Virus record (IMG/VR): IMGVR_UViG_3300018080_000514 | Location: 1-27,012 of that record | Source of the DNA: a virus | Direction: 5' to 3' (one strand) | DNA length: 27,012 nucleotides | Part shown: positions 2,199 through 27,012 of the stretch, piece by piece | How positions within the stretch are numbered: the stretch's first letter is position 1 | Layout of the letters: the number at the start of each line of letters is the position of its first letter | Position numbers and translations under genes: made by a program | Notes under the pieces: model-generated | The model's input: only the letters and a program-made list of their open reading frames with translations | Told to the model about the DNA's origin: nothing | Databases searched by the model: none

Positions 2199-3263
2199 AT
2201 GATTAAATCACTGCATATCCAAAATATTCAAAACCACAAGAATTCTAAACTGCTTTTTCATCCTGGTGTCAATATAATAGTGGGACCAAGTGAACACGGT
2301 AAATCAGCTATAATGAATTCTTTGTACTGGGCATGGCAAAACAGACCCCTTGGTGATCCACACAGAAATTGGGGTGGTGGAGTAATGCTATCAAGGGTTG
2401 TACTGGATAATGGTATTGTTGAAATATCAAGAGATAAACAAACACAGTACAAAATAACAACCCAAAAAGGAACCAAAACATTAAAAGCTGGTGGTCAGAA
2501 TCCACCAGATGAAGTAACCGCCCTTTTCAACATGGACAGAAAGATTAATTTTCAAAAGCAACTGGAAAAAGATGCTCCTATCTTTTTGTTAAGTGAATCA
2601 CCGGGGGAAGTTGCTGCTTTCTTTAATAAAGTGGCTGGTCTTTACAAAATAGATAAAACAGTATCCAAGGGGAAGGCTGATTTAAGAAAGACTGAACTCC
2701 AATTAAATAACATTAAAGAACAAATACAAGATAAGGAAAAAGACCTATCAAAATACGCCGGTATTGATGAAAGGTATACTAAGGTATGCACTTACACCCA
2801 AACCCTTGAAAAACACGAAAATAGTACCCGTATTTTAAACAATACCGGCCTTATGTTGTACGAAATACGTAAACTTGAAAAGTTGAATGAAGTTTTACAA
2901 AAAAGGATGCAGTTAAAAGATGCTTTTGGTAAAGCAATTGTACTTAAAAATAAAATACGAGATTCTTTGGTTTATGTTCAGGAGATCAATGAGAAAAACA
3001 ATACGATCAATGGTGTTACAAAACAAAATAGACTTTTGGGACATAGACTGAAAATAAAAGAAAAAGTAGATGCACTGAGTGATATTGTAATTGAACAAAA
3101 AAAGAAAACTGGTTTTATGAGTACCCTTGAGGAAGTAATATTGCATATTTCTGGTACTTCAAGGGCGGTAGATCATTTACAAGAAGACAAAGAAGAATTA
3201 CAAGAACAATTCCATGAATTGATGCCAAACGTATGTCCATTGTGCGATCAGGAGGTGAAATAA
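2199..3263 (+). CDS. SbcC/Rad50-like ATPase, N-terminal half ending at a zinc hook
   Basis: This is the N-terminal half of an SMC/Rad50/SbcC-type ATPase, which normally tethers and feeds DNA ends to a Mre11/SbcD nuclease. Residues 1-10 begin with the usual strand (MIKSLHIQNIQNHKN). Walker A is GPSEHGKSA at 29-37. A block typical of the family (NFQKQLEKDAPIFLLSES) lies near residues 115-132. Residues about 155-345 are coiled coil. The protein stops right after CPLC (Cys346, Cys349), the zinc-hook motif that in full-length Rad50 sits mid-protein. Walker B, signature and H-loop are absent here and are supplied by the gene at 5697-6308. The upstream gene is 5 bases away. The ATPase assignment is firm. 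Separate translation of the halves is seen directly. Their assembly is inferred. Confidence 0.9.
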   Translation: MIKSLHIQNIQNHKNSKLLFHPGVNIIVGPSEHGKSAIMNSLYWAWQNRPLGDPHRNWGGGVMLSRVVLDNGIVEISRDKQTQYKITTQKGTKTLKAGGQNPPDEVTALFNMDRKINFQKQLEKDAPIFLLSESPGEVAAFFNKVAGLYKIDKTVSKGKADLRKTELQLNNIKEQIQDKEKDLSKYAGIDERYTKVCTYTQTLEKHENSTRILNNTGLMLYEIRKLEKLNEVLQKRMQLKDAFGKAIVLKNKIRDSLVYVQEINEKNNTINGVTKQNRLLGHRLKIKEKVDALSDIVIEQKKKTGFMSTLEEVILHISGTSRAVDHLQEDKEELQEQFHELMPNVCPLCDQEVK

Positions 3264-3270
3264 TAAAACC

Positions 3271-3537
3271 ATGATTGATAGACTTTCTATAACAGGATCT
3301 TGTGATTTCAAACCAACAAAAGAATTACGTGATTTTATGTGTAATCAGTCTTGTGATGAAGAAGTTTCTTTTGAAGCTACATTTGATCCAACAGATCCAA
3401 TAGACCCAATAGATGATTTAGAAGTAGGGCAAGAAGTTGATTTGTTTTATGATAAAGAACATGTACTCTGTACTTTACAAGTAACAAATAAAACCAAAGA
3501 AGGAGTGACACTTAAATTAATGAAAAGGACAAAATAA
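3271..3537 (+). CDS. hypothetical acidic protein within the SbcCD operon (88 aa)
   Basis: The ATG at 3271 lies 12 bases after AGGAGGTGA, a slightly long spacing. The protein is acidic in the middle, with a short DP-rich repeat (DPTDPIDPIDD, about residues 40-50), followed by a beta-rich segment (EVGQEVDLFYDKEHVLCTLQV) that resembles a small OB- or SH3-like barrel. No catalytic residues stand out. Its stop overlaps the nuclease start (TAATG), so it is translationally coupled to the SbcD-like gene. The function is unknown. Confidence 0.6.
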   Translation: MIDRLSITGSCDFKPTKELRDFMCNQSCDEEVSFEATFDPTDPIDPIDDLEVGQEVDLFYDKEHVLCTLQVTNKTKEGVTLKLMKRTK

Positions 3538-4427
3538 TGATACGAAAAAAGAAACCTTTTAATCCTGATCTTATCATCAGTGCAGATTGGCATTTAAGGG
3601 ATACGCAACCTAAATGCAGAACAGATAATTTCTGGGAAGCACAATGGGGCAAAGTTAAGCAGGTACTTACTTTATCAGGTAAGTTAGATTGTCCTATATA
3701 TCTTGCTGGTGACTTATTTCAACATTGGAAAACAAGCCCTTTCCTTTTAAATAAAACAATAAGAGAATTTCTTCCACTTAACGGGTTCATTTATTCTATT
3801 ATCGGCAATCACGACATGCCAGGACACAATATCGAAAACATGGAAAGGTCCGGTTTACAAATTTTATTTGATACAGATATTATACATAGAATACTTTTTC
3901 AAGTTGATTGGGGAACAGATCCGGCTAAACACCGGCCTTTACGAATTAAAAAAAGGACTATAGTATTTGCCCATATTATGACATACAAAGACATTCCCCC
4001 TTGGCCCGGTTGTGAAGACCCAGAATGCCATGAATTATTTGATTGGTTTCCTGATGCTGATTTAATTGTTACTGGTCACAACCACAGAACCTTTACTGCA
4101 AGAAAGGGTAAACAGCTTTTAGTCAACCCCGGTTCACTTACACGGCACAAAGCAGATCAAATAGACCATAGACCTTGTGTATTCTTTTATGATTCTAAGC
4201 AACATAAACTAAAACGCCATTACCTTAAAATAAAAAAGGGGGTGATTAGCAGAGAACATATTGAAATCAAAAAGCACAAAGATAAACGATTAAATGCTTT
4301 TATTGAGAAACTAAAGCAAGGGTGGGATGCTGGACTAAGTTTTGAAGAAAATATTGAAAGAGGGATAAAGGAAAATAAAATACCAAAACGGGTACAAGAT
4401 ATTATTTATACCTGGATGGAGGAGTAA
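3537..4427 (+). CDS. SbcD/Mre11-like metallophosphoesterase (DNA nuclease)
   Basis: This is a calcineurin-like phosphoesterase of the Mre11/SbcD type, which uses two metal ions to cut DNA ends and hairpins together with the SbcC ATPase. All metal-site motifs are present in order: ADWH (Asp17, His19), GDLF (Asp59), GNHD (Asn91, His92, Asp93), a His in AHIMTY (His146) and GHNH (His181, His183). Residues 195-220 (LLVNPGSLTRHKADQ) match the PGS region after the last motif. The C-terminal 70 residues are basic and helical and may contact the ATPase. At 296 aa it is shorter than bacterial SbcD and closer to phage versions. The start overlaps the preceding stop (TAATG). It lies between the two SbcC-like half genes. 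Confidence 0.92.
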   Translation: MIRKKKPFNPDLIISADWHLRDTQPKCRTDNFWEAQWGKVKQVLTLSGKLDCPIYLAGDLFQHWKTSPFLLNKTIREFLPLNGFIYSIIGNHDMPGHNIENMERSGLQILFDTDIIHRILFQVDWGTDPAKHRPLRIKKRTIVFAHIMTYKDIPPWPGCEDPECHELFDWFPDADLIVTGHNHRTFTARKGKQLLVNPGSLTRHKADQIDHRPCVFFYDSKQHKLKRHYLKIKKGVISREHIEIKKHKDKRLNAFIEKLKQGWDAGLSFEENIERGIKENKIPKRVQDIIYTWMEE

Positions 4428-4428
4428 T

Positions 4429-4668
4429 ATGCTTCTACATATAAATAAATTTAGACATTATCATTTTTGGGGTGGGAATTTATGCGGTTTATCTAACATA
4501 AAATCTATAGAATTAACAAAAAATGATATAGAAGGTTTAATAAAAGAAATACAACACAACCCAAAAAGAATTAACTTTTATTTAGAAAATTTAAAATCAA
4601 AAATGAAATCAGAAATAAGAGGACAAAGCGCAAATTTAATAATCATAGATGATCCTTTAGGAGAATAA
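4429..4668 (+). CDS. hypothetical protein (79 aa)
   Basis: A GGAGGAG site ends 4 bases upstream of the ATG, one base after the nuclease stop. The N-terminus is rich in His, Phe and aromatic residues (HINKFRHYHFWGG). The middle has a Lys-rich helix (IEGLIKEIQHNPKRINFYLENLK split by a turn). It ends in LIIIDDPLGE, which vaguely resembles a Walker-B strand but has no ATPase context. I do not recognise the family. It is AT-rich like its neighbours and clearly in the same operon. Confidence 0.6.
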   Translation: MLLHINKFRHYHFWGGNLCGLSNIKSIELTKNDIEGLIKEIQHNPKRINFYLENLKSKMKSEIRGQSANLIIIDDPLGE

Positions 4669-4670
4669 TT

Positions 4671-4955
4671 ATGAGCATCGAAAATGAATTACTGAGTATT
4701 AAAAAGAAACTGGCTAAAACAGAAAATGAAATAGCCCGTAATGATGGCAGGTTAAGTGGACTGTACGATGATCTCAGAAGTGCATTAGATTTACCTAAAA
4801 GCGCAAGTAAAGACAAAATCATTAAAGCTGGTAACACTAAAATACAGTCCTTAAAAAAGCAAATTAAAAAGGATGAAGACACCCTTGAAGAACTGATGGA
4901 AGAAATACAGGAAGAAATACAAACATGGGAGGATGAAGATGAGGATAATAATTGA
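4671..4955 (+). CDS. free coiled-coil protein in the SbcCD operon (94 aa)
   Basis: The protein is almost entirely heptad-like helix. A first coil covers residues 1-40 and a second about 55-90, joined by a short segment (LPKSASKDKIIKAGN). It ends in an acidic tail (WEDEDEDNN). Small coiled-coil proteins of this look accompany phage SbcC-like ATPases. That is from memory of such operons and not proven here. The N-half ATPase has a much longer coil than the C-half, so this protein could pack against the unpaired coil. The start is 2 bases after the upstream stop. The codons of the acidic tail contain the ribosome-binding site of the next gene. Confidence 0.65.
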   Translation: MSIENELLSIKKKLAKTENEIARNDGRLSGLYDDLRSALDLPKSASKDKIIKAGNTKIQSLKKQIKKDEDTLEELMEEIQEEIQTWEDEDEDNN

Positions 4956-5235
4956 CAATGACGGGGAAGCAGCACCCTTTTTGCTTCCTGAAGAAATAAA
5001 AAAGGGTGATATTTTATGTATTAATCCACACACAGGTTATGTAGAAAAAACCACAAAAAATATTAGTGATGGTGATGCCTTTATTGCTGGGGAAGACGTC
5101 ACAACAAGATATTGTTATATTCAAGCAAACACTCATTTAATTTATAATGCTGGAGATGTGGACCCCGCAACAAAATTTTATAATAATTCAATAGGTACCG
5201 ATTTTATTTACGGGTTAGGGGATGAAGATGAATAA
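4939..5235 (+). CDS. hypothetical protein (98 aa)
   Basis: Two in-frame ATGs lie at 4933 and 4939. The second is preferred because GGGAGG (4927-4932) is then 6 bases upstream, while the first touches it. The protein is beta-rich (MRIIIDNDGEAAPFLLP, KGDILCINPHTGYVEKT) with a turn-rich middle, and ends in an acidic GLGDEDE tail. The segment GDILCINPHTGYV followed by GDAFIAGEDV recalls small phage beta-barrel decoration or SH3-like domains, but this is not enough for a name. It overlaps both neighbours. Confidence 0.55.
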   Translation: MRIIIDNDGEAAPFLLPEEIKKGDILCINPHTGYVEKTTKNISDGDAFIAGEDVTTRYCYIQANTHLIYNAGDVDPATKFYNNSIGTDFIYGLGDEDE

Positions 5236-5497
5236 AGTTATATGGAAGTTTGAATTTGAAACCAATGATGTTGTCGAAATACAAATGCCAAAACACGCTG
5301 AGATACTTTATTTGAACGTTCAGCATAATCCATGTATCTGGGCTTTATGTAATCCAAGCGCACAAAGAGAAACACGTGTATTTAGAATTTACGGAACTGG
5401 AAGCCCTATTTCACAAGAAACGCCCAAAACTTATATTGGTTCGTATCATTTGATGAGTGGTGCGTTGGTCTTTCATGTCTTTGAGGTAAAAACATGA
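5228..5497 (+). CDS. DUF7352-type small protein (89 aa)
   Basis: The pattern KVIWKFEF, then a Met-Pro-Lys step (IQMPKHAEIL), then VQHNPCIWALCNP, FRIYGTGSP and a terminal GALVFHVFE matches a small conserved phage and bacterial family I know as DUF7352. The fold is a compact beta sandwich. Its biochemical role is unknown. ATG 5228 is preferred over 5222 because AGGGG then sits 6 bases upstream. It overlaps the previous gene by 8 bases and the next by 4 (ATGA), so it is embedded in the operon between the SbcD-like gene and the SbcC C-terminal half. Confidence 0.7.
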   Translation: MNKVIWKFEFETNDVVEIQMPKHAEILYLNVQHNPCIWALCNPSAQRETRVFRIYGTGSPISQETPKTYIGSYHLMSGALVFHVFEVKT

Positions 5498-5700
5498 TTA
5501 ATAAATTGTGGGATGATTATTTATTTCATTGCTTTGTAAAAAAAATTGAGCGGGAATGTTATTTAATTTTTAATGAAATATTATTAGGTGATTGGTACAA
5601 AAAAACTTTAGATTACCAAGCAACAAAACTTTATATTTCTTTATTAGATTTAAAGATAGAGTTAATAAAATCCTTTCATAAACCAAAGGAAATTAAATGA
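5494..5700 (+). CDS. hypothetical protein (68 aa)
   Basis: The start overlaps the previous stop and its own stop overlaps the SbcC C-half start, both as ATGA. The sequence is helical, rich in Leu, Lys, Tyr and aromatic residues, with no clear membrane segment, no Cys-pair motif and no known signature. It is strongly AT-rich. Position suggests tight translational coupling to the C-terminal ATPase subunit at 5697, so it may be an accessory to that module. The sequence itself does not show a function. Confidence 0.55.
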   Translation: MINKLWDDYLFHCFVKKIERECYLIFNEILLGDWYKKTLDYQATKLYISLLDLKIELIKSFHKPKEIK

Positions 5701-6308
5701 TTGATTTAGAACATTTAAAAGAAAAACTACAAGCTAAACGTACAGAAAGAGATTTAATAAGTAAACAACTGAATAATTTAAAATACCAAAATAAAACCTT
5801 AAAGACTCAAGTAATACGCAAAGAAAGAGCATTGGAATTCATAAAAGACATTGCCTTAAAAACACAAGCACAACTGGAGTACCATCTTAGTGATATGGTC
5901 AGCACTGGCTTGAATACGGTATTTGATACTGAGTACAATTTTAAGGTACTGTTTGAAATCAAAAGGGGTAAGACTGAATGTGGGCTTTGGTATGAAAAAG
6001 ATGGTAATTTAGTAGACCCTATCAGTATGAGTGGATTGGGTGCAGCAGACATAGCAGCCTTTTGTTTACGATGTGCAGGTTGGAGTATGACAAGGCAGTA
6101 CAGAAATACATTAGTACTGGATGAACCCATGACACATTTAAGCCTAAACCATCACGAAAGGGCTGGAGAACTTATAAAGATGTTGAGTAAAGAACTTGGA
6201 TTGCAGATTATTATGGTAACGCATAGTGAAAGATTTACAAACTTTGCAGATAAGATTTTTGAAGTAAAAATGAAAAAAAGGGCATCAAAGGTGAAAGTAT
6301 TAAATTGA
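5697..6308 (+). CDS. SbcC/Rad50-like ATPase, C-terminal half
   Basis: This is the partner of the N-terminal half at 2199. Residues 1-60 are coiled coil. The signature region reads SMSGLGAADIAAF (110-122), a variant of the LSGG motif seen in phage SbcC-like proteins. Walker B is TLVLDEP (138-144) with Asp142 and Glu143, followed by the D-loop and an H-loop His in VTHSERF (His176). No Walker A and no CxxC are present, so this polypeptide cannot hydrolyse ATP alone. Complementation with the N-half would rebuild a complete ATP site. Its coil is far shorter than that of the N-half. The start overlaps the preceding gene (ATGA). It is the last + strand gene before the convergent junction. Confidence 0.9.
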   Translation: MIDLEHLKEKLQAKRTERDLISKQLNNLKYQNKTLKTQVIRKERALEFIKDIALKTQAQLEYHLSDMVSTGLNTVFDTEYNFKVLFEIKRGKTECGLWYEKDGNLVDPISMSGLGAADIAAFCLRCAGWSMTRQYRNTLVLDEPMTHLSLNHHERAGELIKMLSKELGLQIIMVTHSERFTNFADKIFEVKMKKRASKVKVLN

Positions 6309-22314: not shown

Positions 22315-22737
22315 TTAAGATCCACTACCTGAATTCACTGTAACCTGCCCAGTTACCTTGATGGTAATATTACAAGTAATCTGAGAACCTGTGTCCAAAT
22401 TCAACGGAAGTTCCGTAACAAGACCACTGAACTCCAATGAAGTAACATCATCATCAGGCAGAATCATTTCGTAATCAACTTCAGTGTCAGACTCAAAATC
22501 AGTCTTCATGGTATCATAATCGGACCGTGTAAAGTTCATGGTAAAAGTCAATGTGCCGGGATCACGAAAACCGGCAATGAACTCACGATAACCACCAGTG
22601 CTTGCAAGAGACGTTACATCAATCGTCTCTCTGGACATCATTGGGCCGGAGATATTAATAACCTCCCCGACGGAAGCCCAAGCAGAACCTGTCCATTTTT
22701 TAAGTAATGCACCTACACTTGAAATAGCATTAGTCAT
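22315..22737 (-). CDS. major tail tube protein (140 aa)
   Basis: The beta-rich sequence fits siphovirus tube subunits: GEVINISGPMMSRETIDVTS, then TGGYREFIAGFRDPGTLTF, MNFTRSDYDTMK and a C-terminal strand pair (ITCNITIKVTGQVTV). The phrase FRDPGTLTF followed by a Phe-Thr-Arg-Ser step is characteristic. These rings stack around the tape measure to build the tube. A strong AGGAGG sits 7 bases before the start. It lies between the tail terminator and chaperone genes, as in lambda gpV. No extra C-terminal Ig-like domain is present. Confidence 0.85.
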   Translation of the reverse strand: MTNAISSVGALLKKWTGSAWASVGEVINISGPMMSRETIDVTSLASTGGYREFIAGFRDPGTLTFTMNFTRSDYDTMKTDFESDTEVDYEMILPDDDVTSLEFSGLVTELPLNLDTGSQITCNITIKVTGQVTVNSGSGS

Positions 22738-22764
22738 TTGTGTTCCTCCTACTAAGGTTTGTTG

Positions 22765-23175
22765 TTATACTCCAGATCGTTGAATCTGAAAGTTTAAAGA
22801 AAACTGATACCTGTTTTTATCATCAATCCCTAAATAAAGAATATCTGATCTAACAGCTATCTGTATATATCGAGTACCATTCCAAATTTCATTATTTCTG
22901 GCATAATGAAGATAGTACTTGACATCACGCATAAAATCATACCCAGTTATGTAATCCGTATTTCTGTGAATTATTTGAACTCTGGGATACTCATATCCAA
23001 ATTCACCTTGAGCGTTTCCACCACTATCCAATAGTACAGTACAGACATTTGGAGTATCTGGCAATGATGCAAGAAACAAATCCGTACCAAACACAAGACC
23101 AAATCCTGAACTGAAATCCACCAACATATCTTTTACATCTTCACTGGATGGATTGGATATGCTTGATAAGCTCAT
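22765..23175 (-). CDS. tail terminator protein (136 aa)
   Basis: Gene order (completion protein, this gene, tail tube) puts it at the place of lambda gpU, which caps the tube at its head end. The protein has an N-terminal helix (SEDVKDMLVDFS), a strand pair around VCTVLLDSGG, then YEYPRVQIIHRNTDYITGYD, a pattern I recognise from phage terminator/minor capsid proteins, and a final beta segment (NRYQFSLNFQIQR). Start overlaps the stop of the completion gene as TAATG with AAAGGAG upstream. Confidence 0.75.
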   Translation of the reverse strand: MSLSSISNPSSEDVKDMLVDFSSGFGLVFGTDLFLASLPDTPNVCTVLLDSGGNAQGEFGYEYPRVQIIHRNTDYITGYDFMRDVKYYLHYARNNEIWNGTRYIQIAVRSDILYLGIDDKNRYQFSLNFQIQRSGV

Positions 23176-23762
23176 TACAATACTCCTTTAACTTCTTTAG
23201 CAATAGTATAAAGAACCATTCCTTCATTTCTATCTATTGCATTTTCCAAAAACTTAGGACCGGAACCAGGACGGGTCCAACCTATTGAACTTTGGCCTCT
23301 TCCTGATACTGATTTCATATGTCCCAAAGCCCTGCTGGATACGCCCGATACACCAGTCATCTCATGTACATAAATTGCGTAATACGCTCCAAATCCAAAA
23401 GCTACAAACGGTCCTTTTGAACCAAGAGCTGATACTTTAGCTTGCATCTCTGATACTGTACTACTATGGACAGATTGCAATTTCGCGATATCACCCTTAT
23501 ATTTGCGATTTCCGCGACTTTCTTTAAAAGTGGGGGTTCCCCCTATGGGTGTCTTTCCGTCGCTTGTTACGACGAAGAAACTTGCCCTTAAATTGCCAAT
23601 GTCAACCGGAATCAAGGGTGACGTTTTGTCCATGTCCCGGCGTATAATTGTAACGGCGCGAATAAGCCCTTTCATAGTACGTCCTTGTATCTGGTTTATC
23701 TTAATGTTAAGATTCCTCATAACATTTTCTAAACCACGGACTTTATTTCTGGTATTCGCCAT
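23175..23762 (-). CDS. HK97 gp10-like tail completion protein (195 aa)
   Basis: The ATG at 23762 overlaps the upstream stop (TAATG) and is preferred to an in-frame GTG nine bases earlier. Residues 5-60 (RGLENVMRNLNIKINQIQGR, then DMDKTSPLIPVDIGNLRASF) match the HK97 gp10-type tail completion pattern, including the conserved PVDxGxLRxS step. A flexible Gly/Lys segment follows and then the typical FGAYYAIYVHEM. It joins the head-tail stopper to the tube and corresponds to lambda gpZ by position. A GWTRPGSGPKFLENAI motif near the end also fits the family. Confidence 0.85.
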   Translation of the reverse strand: MANTRNKVRGLENVMRNLNIKINQIQGRTMKGLIRAVTIIRRDMDKTSPLIPVDIGNLRASFFVVTSDGKTPIGGTPTFKESRGNRKYKGDIAKLQSVHSSTVSEMQAKVSALGSKGPFVAFGFGAYYAIYVHEMTGVSGVSSRALGHMKSVSGRGQSSIGWTRPGSGPKFLENAIDRNEGMVLYTIAKEVKGVL

Positions 23763-24526: not shown

Positions 24527-25234
24527 CTACTTTCTGCTTTTCCAGAACTTGGGTTCAATGAAATCCATTACGGCAGGGCCGTTCCAAGTAAGTCCTAGCC
24601 ATTCCATTGTATACATCATTTGTTCATAATCTGCATTTACCATTCTTTCGGGCCACACCATCTGCACATTCAAACCAGCTTTAATAATTTCCACAAACTT
24701 TTCTTCATGCTGATGTACCCACCAAAGCCACCCTTCTTTCTCATTTTTAGCATCAACTGCTCTTTGAATCTTTTCACTGGCAAACGCAGTCATAAAACCT
24801 GTGCGCATACATGAATTTACAATATCAGATGTCTTTCTACGTACAATGATCCATTTACTGTTAGGAAAAGCATACTGCCAAACGGGCCACAAAAGAGACA
24901 TTTTTGCACATTTATACATCCACGGTTTATCTGGTGTCCATCCTTGTTTACGCATTACCCCTAAAACTGTTTCTTTAAATCTTTGAGGGATAATCACATC
25001 TTCAGTCTTTGGCAATGGAAACTGACCTCTTCTATCCATCCCCATGTTCATTAAGATTGGCTTTACAACCTTTTCCCTTAACTCATGATTTTCATACATC
25101 CCTTTAGGGTTCCATCGTCCTGGCCCTTGCGTATCCCCTTTAAATGCACCACATAGATGAATACAAGCTGCTACTAAAGACGTTCCTGACCTTGCTGCTC
25201 CTGTGATTAAGATTGGTTTATCTGTATAGTCCAT
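24527..25234 (-). CDS. P-loop sulfotransferase family protein (235 aa)
   Basis: Sulfotransferases move a sulfate group from PAPS to an acceptor such as a sugar. The 5'-phosphosulfate loop is ITGAARSGTSLVA at residues 10-22. The 3'-phosphate-binding segment is VRRKTSDIVNSCMRT at 131-145, following YKCAKMSLLWPVWQ. Residue spacing fits the P-loop family, and the length of 235 aa is on the short side. AAGGAG precedes the start. It lies between a two-domain glycosyltransferase and the head-tail adaptor gene, so it may sulfate sugars or a virion component, which is inference. PAPS would have to come from the host. Confidence 0.88.
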   Translation of the reverse strand: MDYTDKPILITGAARSGTSLVAACIHLCGAFKGDTQGPGRWNPKGMYENHELREKVVKPILMNMGMDRRGQFPLPKTEDVIIPQRFKETVLGVMRKQGWTPDKPWMYKCAKMSLLWPVWQYAFPNSKWIIVRRKTSDIVNSCMRTGFMTAFASEKIQRAVDAKNEKEGWLWWVHQHEEKFVEIIKAGLNVQMVWPERMVNADYEQMMYTMEWLGLTWNGPAVMDFIEPKFWKSRK

Positions 25235-25252
25235 GATTAGAACTCCTTAAAA

Positions 25253-26743
25253 TTAAACCCAGTTTTGTGCCACCCAAGGCAAATCCGTGCAGTCATGTAT
25301 CATTGGTTTTCCATGAAAGGATACCATTTTTACTTCTGCATCAGGTTTACCACCATTCATCTTTTTTATTTCTCGTTTATATGATTTATACATTCCAGGA
25401 TAGGCTTTTTGCCAAAATTCCATACCACCATTATATACTTTTGAATAAAACTTTCGTTCGCTTTTCTTTGTGCGTTTTATTATTAGTGCTGAATTTTCAA
25501 TAATGTCATTGTACCAAGAATCACCCCATCCACCTACAAACGAAATTAAATCCCCACCTGGTTTAGTATTATTATTGATAGCTCCACGCATACAAAACGG
25601 ACCAGAGTAATCCAAAATAGGATCAATGTTATCAATTACCAGTGTATCTAAATCAAACAAAAAGATTCGTTTATTATATAAAAAATCATTACTGAATTCA
25701 TACGCATATATTTTATTCAAATTTCCAAGTTTTTCAATATACGGCATGGGTATGTAACTTACATCACCTTTTCTGATAGCCTTTGAGTATTTATCATTTA
25801 AACACCAAAATGAACACTTACGAGTTGTGTTTCTTTTTATTGCATTAAATAACTTTTCTGGATAACGTTCATCGAACTTAGTTCCCCAGAAACAAGCAAC
25901 AATATGATGTTCAGGTTCTAACAAATCTTTATTGGTACTCACAAATCTTTTTATTTCAGAGTACCGTAGATAAGAAACATCTTCCCTTTCTACATTATTA
26001 AAGTAATCACATAACCACTTTCTCGACGTTGCGTTTTTGGACCAAGGCTTAATTTTACCATTAAAATGAATAATACGTGCATCTTCTGGTAACTCTTCCC
26101 ACATCTTAGCACCGTCTTGGGAATGATAAATACCCATTTCATCAGGAAATACCGCACAGTCCTTGGCTAAATTGTAACTCAACCATGCCTGATCCGATCC
26201 ACGCCATCCCACTTCTCGTGCTTTCTTTTGTCCTTCTTCAGAAAAGTTTTCCCAAATATGTGTATGAGTACCAGTTCTTAACAACCACGTTCCACCACCA
26301 ATCCTGTACGATCCATTTATAGGGCGAATTTTAGCCCTTTGTTCAGACTTGGGCCTCCAACCCACAAAATCGTTGGACATCGAAAATAAGGGGGCTAAAT
26401 CGTTCACAATCATGACATCAATATCAAGTAAAAGAATCCGATCCCCTAAACACTTTGCTTCTTTGGAAAAAAGCCATAATCTCCTATAACTGGACGGCAT
26501 TGTGGGTTTCTCAAGAGTCTTTACCTCTTTTATCCACTGTGCTTCTTTTGGTAACTGGAATAATTCTACTTTATCATTGAATCCTTCTGTTTCATCAGTT
26601 ACACAAATAAACCGATACGGAATGCTCATGTATTTATAAAGTAAGTTTGCTAACCTATTTACATGTTCAGGCCAATACCTCCTTGAACCTTCTTCATTCC
26701 AAAGAAAACACACAATAGAATTTTGTTCTTCACAATGCAACAT
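25253..26743 (-). CDS. tandem-domain GT-A glycosyltransferase (496 aa)
   Basis: Two similar halves are present. The first (residues 8-270) has IVCFLWNEEGSRRYWPEHV, a DxD motif in LLLDIDVMIVND (Asp107, Asp109) and IIHFNGKIKPW. The second (280-496) has IVACFWGTKFDERYPEKLF, DxD in FLFDLDTLVIDN (Asp364, Asp366) and VSFHGKPMIHD. Both follow the nucleotide-sugar GT-A layout, so each domain likely keeps an active site, and the gene arose by internal duplication. Start at 26743 is the first ATG. A TTG at 26788 would add 15 residues but has no better site. It overlaps the upstream gene by 14 bases. Sugar and acceptor cannot be told from sequence. Confidence 0.85.
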   Translation of the reverse strand: MLHCEEQNSIVCFLWNEEGSRRYWPEHVNRLANLLYKYMSIPYRFICVTDETEGFNDKVELFQLPKEAQWIKEVKTLEKPTMPSSYRRLWLFSKEAKCLGDRILLLDIDVMIVNDLAPLFSMSNDFVGWRPKSEQRAKIRPINGSYRIGGGTWLLRTGTHTHIWENFSEEGQKKAREVGWRGSDQAWLSYNLAKDCAVFPDEMGIYHSQDGAKMWEELPEDARIIHFNGKIKPWSKNATSRKWLCDYFNNVEREDVSYLRYSEIKRFVSTNKDLLEPEHHIVACFWGTKFDERYPEKLFNAIKRNTTRKCSFWCLNDKYSKAIRKGDVSYIPMPYIEKLGNLNKIYAYEFSNDFLYNKRIFLFDLDTLVIDNIDPILDYSGPFCMRGAINNNTKPGGDLISFVGGWGDSWYNDIIENSALIIKRTKKSERKFYSKVYNGGMEFWQKAYPGMYKSYKREIKKMNGGKPDAEVKMVSFHGKPMIHDCTDLPWVAQNWV

Positions 26744-27012
26744 GGTATTTACCTGACAATTTCGTAAGTTTATGCTCAATTTTAGCAACTACCTTATGTA
26801 CTGGTTTTTTAGCAGAATTAAGTGTGATAATATTGCATTTTCTTTCTTGCAGTATAGGCAAATATTTTTCATGTGCATCAATGCATCTCAGTGTCTTTTC
26901 GTATCTGTTCCTTTCTTTGCGTTCTTCGTTCCTTATCTTTAGTGTATTTTTGTCTGCTGTCATTACTACCAATAATTCTGGCAAAGGCACTGTACTAAAA
27001 TATTCTTCTGCA
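26730..27012 (-). CDS. C-terminal part of a nucleotide-kinase-like protein (5' end outside window)
   Basis: The frame is open to the right edge and encodes 93 residues before its stop. The sequence PELLVVMTADKNTLKIRNEE followed by RKERNRYEKTLRCIDAHEKY, CNIITLNS and a closing helix matches the C-terminal region of P-loop nucleotide kinases of the thymidylate/deoxynucleoside type: a strand, an Arg-rich lid, then a helix and final strand. The Walker A part, which would prove it, is beyond the edge. A GTG at 26990 could also start a short version but the upstream residues (AEEYFST) fit the family. A kinase of another type is possible. Confidence 0.55.
   Translation of the reverse strand, partial: AEEYFSTVPLPELLVVMTADKNTLKIRNEERKERNRYEKTLRCIDAHEKYLPILQERKCNIITLNSAKKPVHKVVAKIEHKLTKLSGKYHVAL

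What the first reader, a model, noticed from the sequence alone, without database searches (positions are those of the whole stretch)
2199..6308. SbcC/Rad50 ATPase split at the zinc hook into two genes that flank SbcD
The N-half (354 aa) has Walker A and stops five residues after its first hook Cys, at CPLCDQEVK. The C-half (203 aa) has signature, Walker B and H-loop but no Walker A or hook. Normally both are one polypeptide of 600-1000 aa with the hook in the middle. Here they are separate genes 2.4 kb apart with the nuclease and six small genes between. A protein whose ends are a P-loop and a hook must meet its partner in trans. This could be a compact multi-part Rad50-Mre11 machine. Split forms may exist in other phages, so novelty needs a check.
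Basis: partly seen in the sequence, partly recalled or inferred. Interest (0 to 1): 0.72.

Follow-up and report, generated by a model that had tools for sequence, protein, structure and literature searches.

The report
Naturally split phage Rad50 (SbcC)
A group of bacterial viruses encodes the DNA-break-repair ATPase Rad50/SbcC as separate protein pieces instead of one long chain, next to its partner nuclease and a small, previously unrecognised coiled-coil protein, and this cut-up design is conserved across dozens of viruses.

Summary
The N-half (2199-3263) carries the N-terminal Rad50 lobe, Walker A and one long arm ending in CPLC. The C-half (5697-6308) carries the C-terminal lobe with Walker B. 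An Mre11-type nuclease lies between them. This is not decay: profile searches found 74 distinct loci with the same split, no same-family fusion, Walker A K and Walker B DE in 74/74, CxxC near the N-half's C-terminus in 70/74, nuclease metal ligands invariant, and dN/dS well below 1. Predicted structures of the halves match complementary parts of the same Pyrococcus Rad50 head, which was itself solved from two separate chains. It is single-copy beside nearly every split locus and usually just upstream of the C-half, giving an order N, S, C collinear with an ordinary one-chain Rad50. S may be the missing descending-arm segment; that step is inferred. The module follows polymerase, clamp-loader, RecA and endonuclease VII genes in the nearest relatives, suggesting recombination and end processing. 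I found no description of it in the papers searched. Verdict: new variant of a known kind; core reading well supported, S's role open.

The parts
2199..3263 (+). N-half of split Rad50/SbcC: N-lobe with Walker A (residues 29-36), Q-loop region (Q121 near-invariant), long ascending helix ending in CPLC hook motif (C346, C349)
   Evidence: PF13476 over cut-off; phrog_16465; AF2 pLDDT 87, residues 1-123 match Pfu Rad50 2-141; 66-member alignment; motif counts
3537..4427 (+). SbcD/Mre11-type calcineurin-like nuclease, 296 aa
   Evidence: Metallophos Pfam hits; 40-member profile best matches are Mre11/SbcD chains; D17, H19, D59, H92, H146, H183 invariant in 74/74
4671..4955 (+). S: 94-aa coiled-coil protein, conserved single-copy companion of the split; proposed descending-arm segment
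   Evidence: iterated profile, 98 hits in 98 loci, one per locus; no hits among reversed ORFs and recovered at 9e-10 with its own clade left out; dN/dS 0.01-0.21 in close relatives
5697..6308 (+). C-half of split Rad50/SbcC: about 45 aa of coiled coil, then C-lobe with signature-like motif (112-118), Walker B (D142, E143), H-loop (H176)
   Evidence: phrog_15167; AF2 pLDDT 95.7, residues 54-203 match Pfu Rad50 738-882, Z 16.0; D/E 74/74
3271..3537 (+). small ORF (88 aa) between N-half and nuclease, no family match; passenger or unknown
4429..4668 (+). small ORF (79 aa) after nuclease; a similar 88-aa ORF sits at the same place in L002
4933..5235 (+). small ORF (100 aa), no family match
5222..5497 (+). 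DUF7352 protein (91 aa); a similar 112-aa ORF sits between S and the C-half in L002
   Evidence: PF24043 2.3e-23
5494..5700 (+). small ORF (68 aa) overlapping the C-half start by 4 bases (ATGA)

Best explanation
The locus encodes a phage Mre11-Rad50 (SbcCD) complex whose Rad50 subunit is made of separate chains. The N-half folds into the N-terminal ATPase lobe plus the ascending coiled-coil arm tipped by the CxxC zinc hook. The C-half folds into the C-terminal lobe plus the first ~45 residues of the descending arm. The two lobes assemble in trans into one composite ABC head (Walker A Lys35 facing Walker B Asp142/Glu143), two such heads sandwich ATP, and the Mre11-type nuclease docks at their base to process DNA ends or hairpins during phage replication and recombination. 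Shown: the sequence anatomy, conservation, selection, gene linkage and complementary structural matches. Inferred: the physical complex, ATP hydrolysis, Zn binding and the DNA substrate. The small S protein is most likely another member of the complex (about 0.7) and, less certainly (about 0.45), the upper part of the descending arm. Read this way, the gene order N, S, C repeats the domain order of a single-chain Rad50.
For: N and C profiles hit complementary parts of the same Rad50 chains (3aux: N 4-222, C 174-368; 5f3w: N 4-218, C 175-369). AF2 models match Pfu Rad50 2-141 (Z 13.1) and 738-882 (Z 16.0); entry 1f2u holds exactly these as separate chains. 62 unique loci found by a C-half pattern alone: 53 have an N-half within the fetched stretch, 58 the nuclease, 59 S, none with N and C in one ORF. 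Complete phage genomes hold one N and one C each; four host genomes hold one such pair each. Catalytic residues invariant. dN/dS: C 0.02-0.18, S 0.01-0.21, nuclease 0.05-0.28, N 0.06-0.38 in pairs with enough change. Two loci fuse the nuclease to the N-half, supporting partnership. For S: one per locus; order N-D-S-C in 58 and N-S-C-D in 13 of 74; in L105 an S-like stretch follows the hook in the D-N fusion (E 5e-4); Lamassu LmuB model PDLC03859 aligns N at 5-341 and C at 429-594, leaving an 87-position gap of S size. Context: DNA polymerase A, clamp loader, RecA and endonuclease VII genes upstream in L002/L003.
Against: No complex was modelled or tested. The signature motif lacks the canonical LSGGE (Ser in only 22/74). 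The H-loop His is 53/74. The N-arm length varies (about 145-346 residues) while S and the C-half coil stay short, so a simple paired arm is not explained in the long-armed members. The L105 S-like stretch is weak by profile-profile comparison (P 0.007), and coiled coils give false similarity. Microbacterium phage Magritte has both halves but no CxxC in its N-half.
Confidence: 0.85

Rival explanations
1. The halves are decayed fragments of a once intact SbcC, kept by chance.
For: Split genes can arise by frameshift or insertion; a homing-type AP2 gene lies between the halves in Bacillus phage vB_BboS-125.
Against: 74 distinct loci with the same split and invariant motifs; dN/dS well below 1 in all four genes; each half has its own start and a defined end just after CxxC; no other AAA_23-type SbcC in the window record or in two complete phage genomes searched.
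Confidence: 0.02
2. The two ATPase halves act separately or with other partners (for example the N-half as a DNA-tethering protein through its hook, the C-half as a regulator) rather than forming one head.
For: In Magritte and some IMG/VR contigs the halves lie far apart in the genome, and no interface was modelled.
Against: An ABC ATPase lobe with only Walker A or only Walker B cannot form a catalytic site; both sets are invariant; 1:1 co-occurrence; complementary structural matches.
Confidence: 0.08
3. It is an SMC-like defence or counter-defence system (Lamassu-like: LmuB with a nuclease) rather than a replication-recombination enzyme.
For: N- and C-halves match LmuB models at 7e-16 and 1e-5.
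Against: The nuclease is Mre11/SbcD type with no PADLOC match; the module sits in the replication-recombination cluster of the nearest relatives; LmuB itself is Rad50-like, so the match shows kinship, not function.
Confidence: 0.07
4. S is not part of the Rad50 rod but an accessory regulator of the nuclease complex (a small coiled-coil adaptor). This rival concerns S only and is compatible with the core reading.
For: S is often directly downstream of the nuclease gene; N arms differ greatly in length while S does not; in Magritte S (gp245) sits beside a different nuclease, far from N and C.
Against: Order collinear with a single-chain Rad50 and adjacency to the C-half; S-like stretch after the hook in L105; S-sized gap in LmuB alignment.
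Confidence: 0.4

Closest known systems
Mre11-Rad50 / SbcCD (archaeal Rad50, E. coli SbcCD, T4 gp46/gp47)
   Same: N- and C-lobes, Walker A/B, H-loop, CxxC hook, coiled-coil arm, Mre11-type nuclease, replication-recombination context
   Different: Rad50 is one chain in these; here it is at least two chains with the nuclease gene between, CxxC at the chain end, non-canonical signature motif, and an extra conserved small coiled-coil gene
Two-chain crystal construct of Pyrococcus furiosus Rad50 (entries 1f2t, 1f2u, 1ii8)
   Same: N-lobe (2-148) and C-lobe (738-882) as separate polypeptides forming one head; the phage halves match exactly these chains
   Different: Made in the laboratory without most of the coiled coil and without the hook; the phage split is natural and keeps one full arm with the hook
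Mre11/Rad50 fusion proteins (Mimivirus R555 and others; PMC3175470)
   Same: L064 and L105 fuse the nuclease to the Rad50 N-half; the paper notes that fusions of Bacillus phage 0305phi8-36 and Anaerostipes lack one P-loop NTPase segment
   Different: In Mimivirus both Rad50 lobes are in the fusion; the passages read do not describe a separate C-half gene. Phage 0305phi8-36 is not held here and was not tested
Lamassu LmuB (SMC-like defence ATPase)
   Same: Rad50-like single chain of about 610 aa; N- and C-halves align to its two ends with an S-sized gap between
   Different: Single chain; works with other nuclease effectors; defence function
PHROG families phrog_16465 ('exonuclease'), phrog_15167 ('ATPase'), phrog_18563 (unknown)
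   Same: These are the N-half, C-half and, for six S members, the S family in a public phage library
   Different: Catalogued separately, without recognition that they are pieces of one Rad50

Membership tests
Rad50/SbcC | N-lobe with Walker A and Q-loop homologous to Rad50 | tested here: met
   Profile hit to Rad50 3aux 8.8e-19; fold match Z 13.1; K35 74/74, Q121 73/74
Rad50/SbcC | C-lobe with Walker B and H-loop homologous to Rad50 | tested here: met
   Rad50 7e-16; fold Z 16.0; D142/E143 74/74, H176 53/74
Rad50/SbcC | Canonical ABC signature LSGGE | tested here: not met
   Motif is [S/R]-G-[G/L]-G-x-x-D; Ser 22/74, Gly at the Glu position 74/74
Rad50/SbcC | Zinc-hook CxxC at the tip of the coiled coil | tested here: met
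   CxxC in the last 30 residues of 70/74 N-halves, at the end of a helix 189-341 in the model; Zn binding not testable
Rad50/SbcC | Both lobes in one polypeptide joined by an antiparallel coiled coil | tested here: not met
   Separate ORFs in the window and all 74 loci
Rad50/SbcC | Linked to an Mre11/SbcD nuclease | tested here: met
   SbcD-type gene in all 74 split loci; profile to Mre11 1e-14
Rad50/SbcC | ATP-driven head dimerisation and ATP-dependent nuclease activity | not testable with these tools
   Needs biochemistry or a multimer model
SMC proteins | Globular hinge domain between the arms | tested here: not met
   N-half runs as helix to the CxxC end with no hinge in the model
Lamassu (LmuB) | LmuB with LmuA/LmuC partners | tested here: inconclusive
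   LmuB-like score for the halves, none for the nuclease or S; larger neighbourhood not tested for LmuA/LmuC

The most novel reading that the evidence does not exclude
Rad50 in these phages is a three-chain machine: N-half arm with hook, S as the upper descending arm, and C-half with the lower arm and C-lobe. The rod then has two chain breaks, one right at the zinc hook, so DNA could be let in or out by opening the rod, and the head and arm could be assembled or exchanged piecewise.
Probability: 0.35. Interest if true: 0.8.

Novelty: new variant of a known kind. Interest (0 to 1): 0.62.

Why it matters
Whether the continuous coiled-coil rod and closed hook of Rad50 are needed for its function is a long-standing question. 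Here nature has cut the rod in the same places across many viruses and kept it under selection. That gives a compact system (354 + 94 + 203 + 296 aa) in which heads, arm and nuclease can be expressed, mutated and recombined separately, and it identifies an unrecognised fourth component. It also means that phage annotation pipelines calling these genes 'exonuclease', 'ATPase' or 'hypothetical' are missing a recombination complex.

Tried and rejected
Decay was rejected on conservation and dN/dS. Searching for same-family N-C fusions gave none; the only single-chain SbcC loci found (L107-L110) score far lower and fall outside the split clade in a quick tree that had only three of these as outgroups and no printed support. 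Single-sequence searches reached few relatives; profiles were needed. Pfam and PHROG matches of S to scaffold, FliJ, apolipoprotein and similar families scatter over many coiled-coil families and were taken as coiled-coil noise; S has no convincing solved relative. Profile-profile comparison of S with the N-half and with the L105 fusion was weak. The phmmer hits of the nuclease to VPS29 were superseded by the profile, which ranks Mre11 first. Phage 0305phi8-36 is not in the collections. Promoter and terminator counts do not exceed shuffles. No paper describing a split Rad50/SbcC was found, but subscription journals and preprints are not held.
Full report
OBSERVATION. The window is the whole of a 27,012-base virus record. 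ORFs are as stated: N-half 2199-3263 (354 aa, ending ...MPNVCPLCDQEVK), nuclease 3537-4427 (296 aa), C-half 5697-6308 (203 aa), with six small ORFs between, all on the + strand and closely packed, several overlapping. PF13476 hits the N-half once in the record and nothing else. The C-half matches SMC_N and AAA_15 C-terminal parts and the last ~190 positions of the SbcC-like PHROG 77.

THE SPLIT IS A CONSERVED DESIGN. First relatives: L002 and L003 (IMG/VR, 48% identical N-halves), Bacillus phage vB_BboS-125 (gp32 N, gp35 C) and Microcystis phage Mvi-JY20. Profile searches of viral contigs gave 111 C-half relatives (best 80 kept) and 24 N-half relatives, and a genome scan gave four Bacillota loci. 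Annotating all with HMMs: among 62 sequence-unique loci retrieved by the C-half pattern alone, 53 contain an N-half, 58 the nuclease and 59 the small S gene within the fetched stretch, and none carries N and C in one ORF. In total there are 74 unique split loci; CxxC lies within the last 30 residues of the N-half in 70. Several loci that seemed to lack N have it elsewhere in the contig. Complete genomes W01, W02 and W03 each hold one N and one C; in Microbacterium phage Magritte they are gp155 and gp2, tens of kb apart. Four bacterial genomes hold one such pair each, far above any other match. Counts are not prevalence: the search pattern biases them, some members are near-identical, and among 50,697 phage records only three distinct isolates were clear hits with both halves.

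COMPETENCE. Across 74 loci: Walker A Gly29/Gly34/Lys35 74/74, Q121 73/74, hook Cys 73/74 and 71/74, Walker B Asp142/Glu143 74/74, H-loop His 53/74, nuclease D17, H19, D59, H92, H146, H183 all 74/74. The signature is [S/R]-G-[G/L]-G-x-x-D rather than LSGGE. dN/dS in close pairs is well below 1 for N, nuclease, S and C. Decayed fragments would not look like this.

STRUCTURE. AF2 of the C-half: mean pLDDT 95.7, helix 3-75 then the C-lobe; best solved match Pfu Rad50 chain 1f2u_B, Z 16.0, model 54-203 on residues 738-882. AF2 of the N-half: mean pLDDT 87, N-lobe, helix 149-184, short break, one helix 189-341, then CPLC (residues 126-130 and the tip are less certain); residues 1-123 match Pfu Rad50 2-141, Z 13.1, and residues 1-128 match 1f2u_C (2-148), Z 12.9. 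Sequence profiles agree and are complementary on single chains (3aux, 5f3w, 3qku). In 1f2u the two lobes are separate chains (chain ranges), so the phage arrangement mirrors a laboratory construct. The structure tool takes single unmodified chains, so the interface could not be modelled.

THE FOURTH GENE. A 94-aa coiled-coil ORF (window 4671-4955) has a counterpart in almost every split locus. Iterating a profile from five members converged on 98 hits in 98 loci, one each. Reversed ORFs give none, and a profile built without the window's clade still finds the window's S at 9e-10. No S was found in the records of the single-chain SbcC loci tested; that search also missed the known S of Mvi-JY20 and of L064, so its negatives are soft. 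Gene order is N-D-S-C in 58 loci, N-S-C-D in 13, D-N-S-C in the two loci where D and N are fused, and N-D-C without S in one. So N, S and C keep the order that their counterparts would have in one Rad50 chain. In L105 an S-like stretch follows the hook inside a nuclease-N fusion (18.9 bits, E 5e-4), but pairwise profile comparison is weak. Lamassu LmuB model PDLC03859 aligns with the N-half at 5-341 and the C-half at 429-594, leaving 87 positions, the size of S. I infer that S is probably in the complex and possibly the upper descending arm. Against this: N arms range from about 145 to 346 residues while S stays near 80, and in Magritte S (gp245) is beside a different nuclease.

NUCLEASE. A 40-member profile ranks archaeal Mre11 and bacterial SbcD first. 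Two ligand positions covary: N91/H181 (32), Q91/D181 (34), N91/D181 (8), Q91/H181 (0). The Mimivirus paper also notes Asp in place of the Pfu His206 (PMC3175470).

FUNCTION. In L002 the module follows DNA polymerase A, clamp-loader and RecA-like genes, and in L003 a RecA-like and an endonuclease VII-like gene, so recombination-dependent replication and end processing, as for T4 gp46/47, is the likely role (inference).

KNOWN OR NEW. The families exist in PHROGs under unlinked names, and vB_BboS-125 annotators called them exonuclease and ATPase. The Mimivirus paper noted that a Bacillus phage fusion lacked one NTPase segment. I found no paper that describes Rad50/SbcC as a conserved split protein, within an open-licence library. 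I rate it a new variant of a known kind.

Noticed in passing
L004:8424-9404 (NC_048735.1 about 22423-23403): An SbcD-like ORF in Bacillus phage vB_BboS-125 lies in a stretch where the record has no annotated gene.
   Followed up: partly
window 3537-4427 and 73 homologues: Two metal-ligand positions of the nuclease covary: N91 with H181 or Q91 with D181, never Q with H, suggesting two alternative metal sites.
   Followed up: partly
L124:863-1980 (OR553905.1 126362-127479): In Microbacterium phage Magritte, S (gp245) follows gp244, whose sequence suggests a PD-(D/E)XK or Cas4-like nuclease, not SbcD; a separate SbcD-like match is at 119660-120067.
   Followed up: partly
L121:1839-2891 (Magritte gp155): An N-half without any CxxC hook, in a genome that also has C-half and S.
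   Followed up: no
window 24527-26788: A glycosyltransferase-8-like and a sulfotransferase-like gene lie beside the structural genes on the - strand.
   Followed up: no
window 5222-5497: DUF7352 gene between S and C-half; L002 has a similar ORF at the same place.
   Followed up: no
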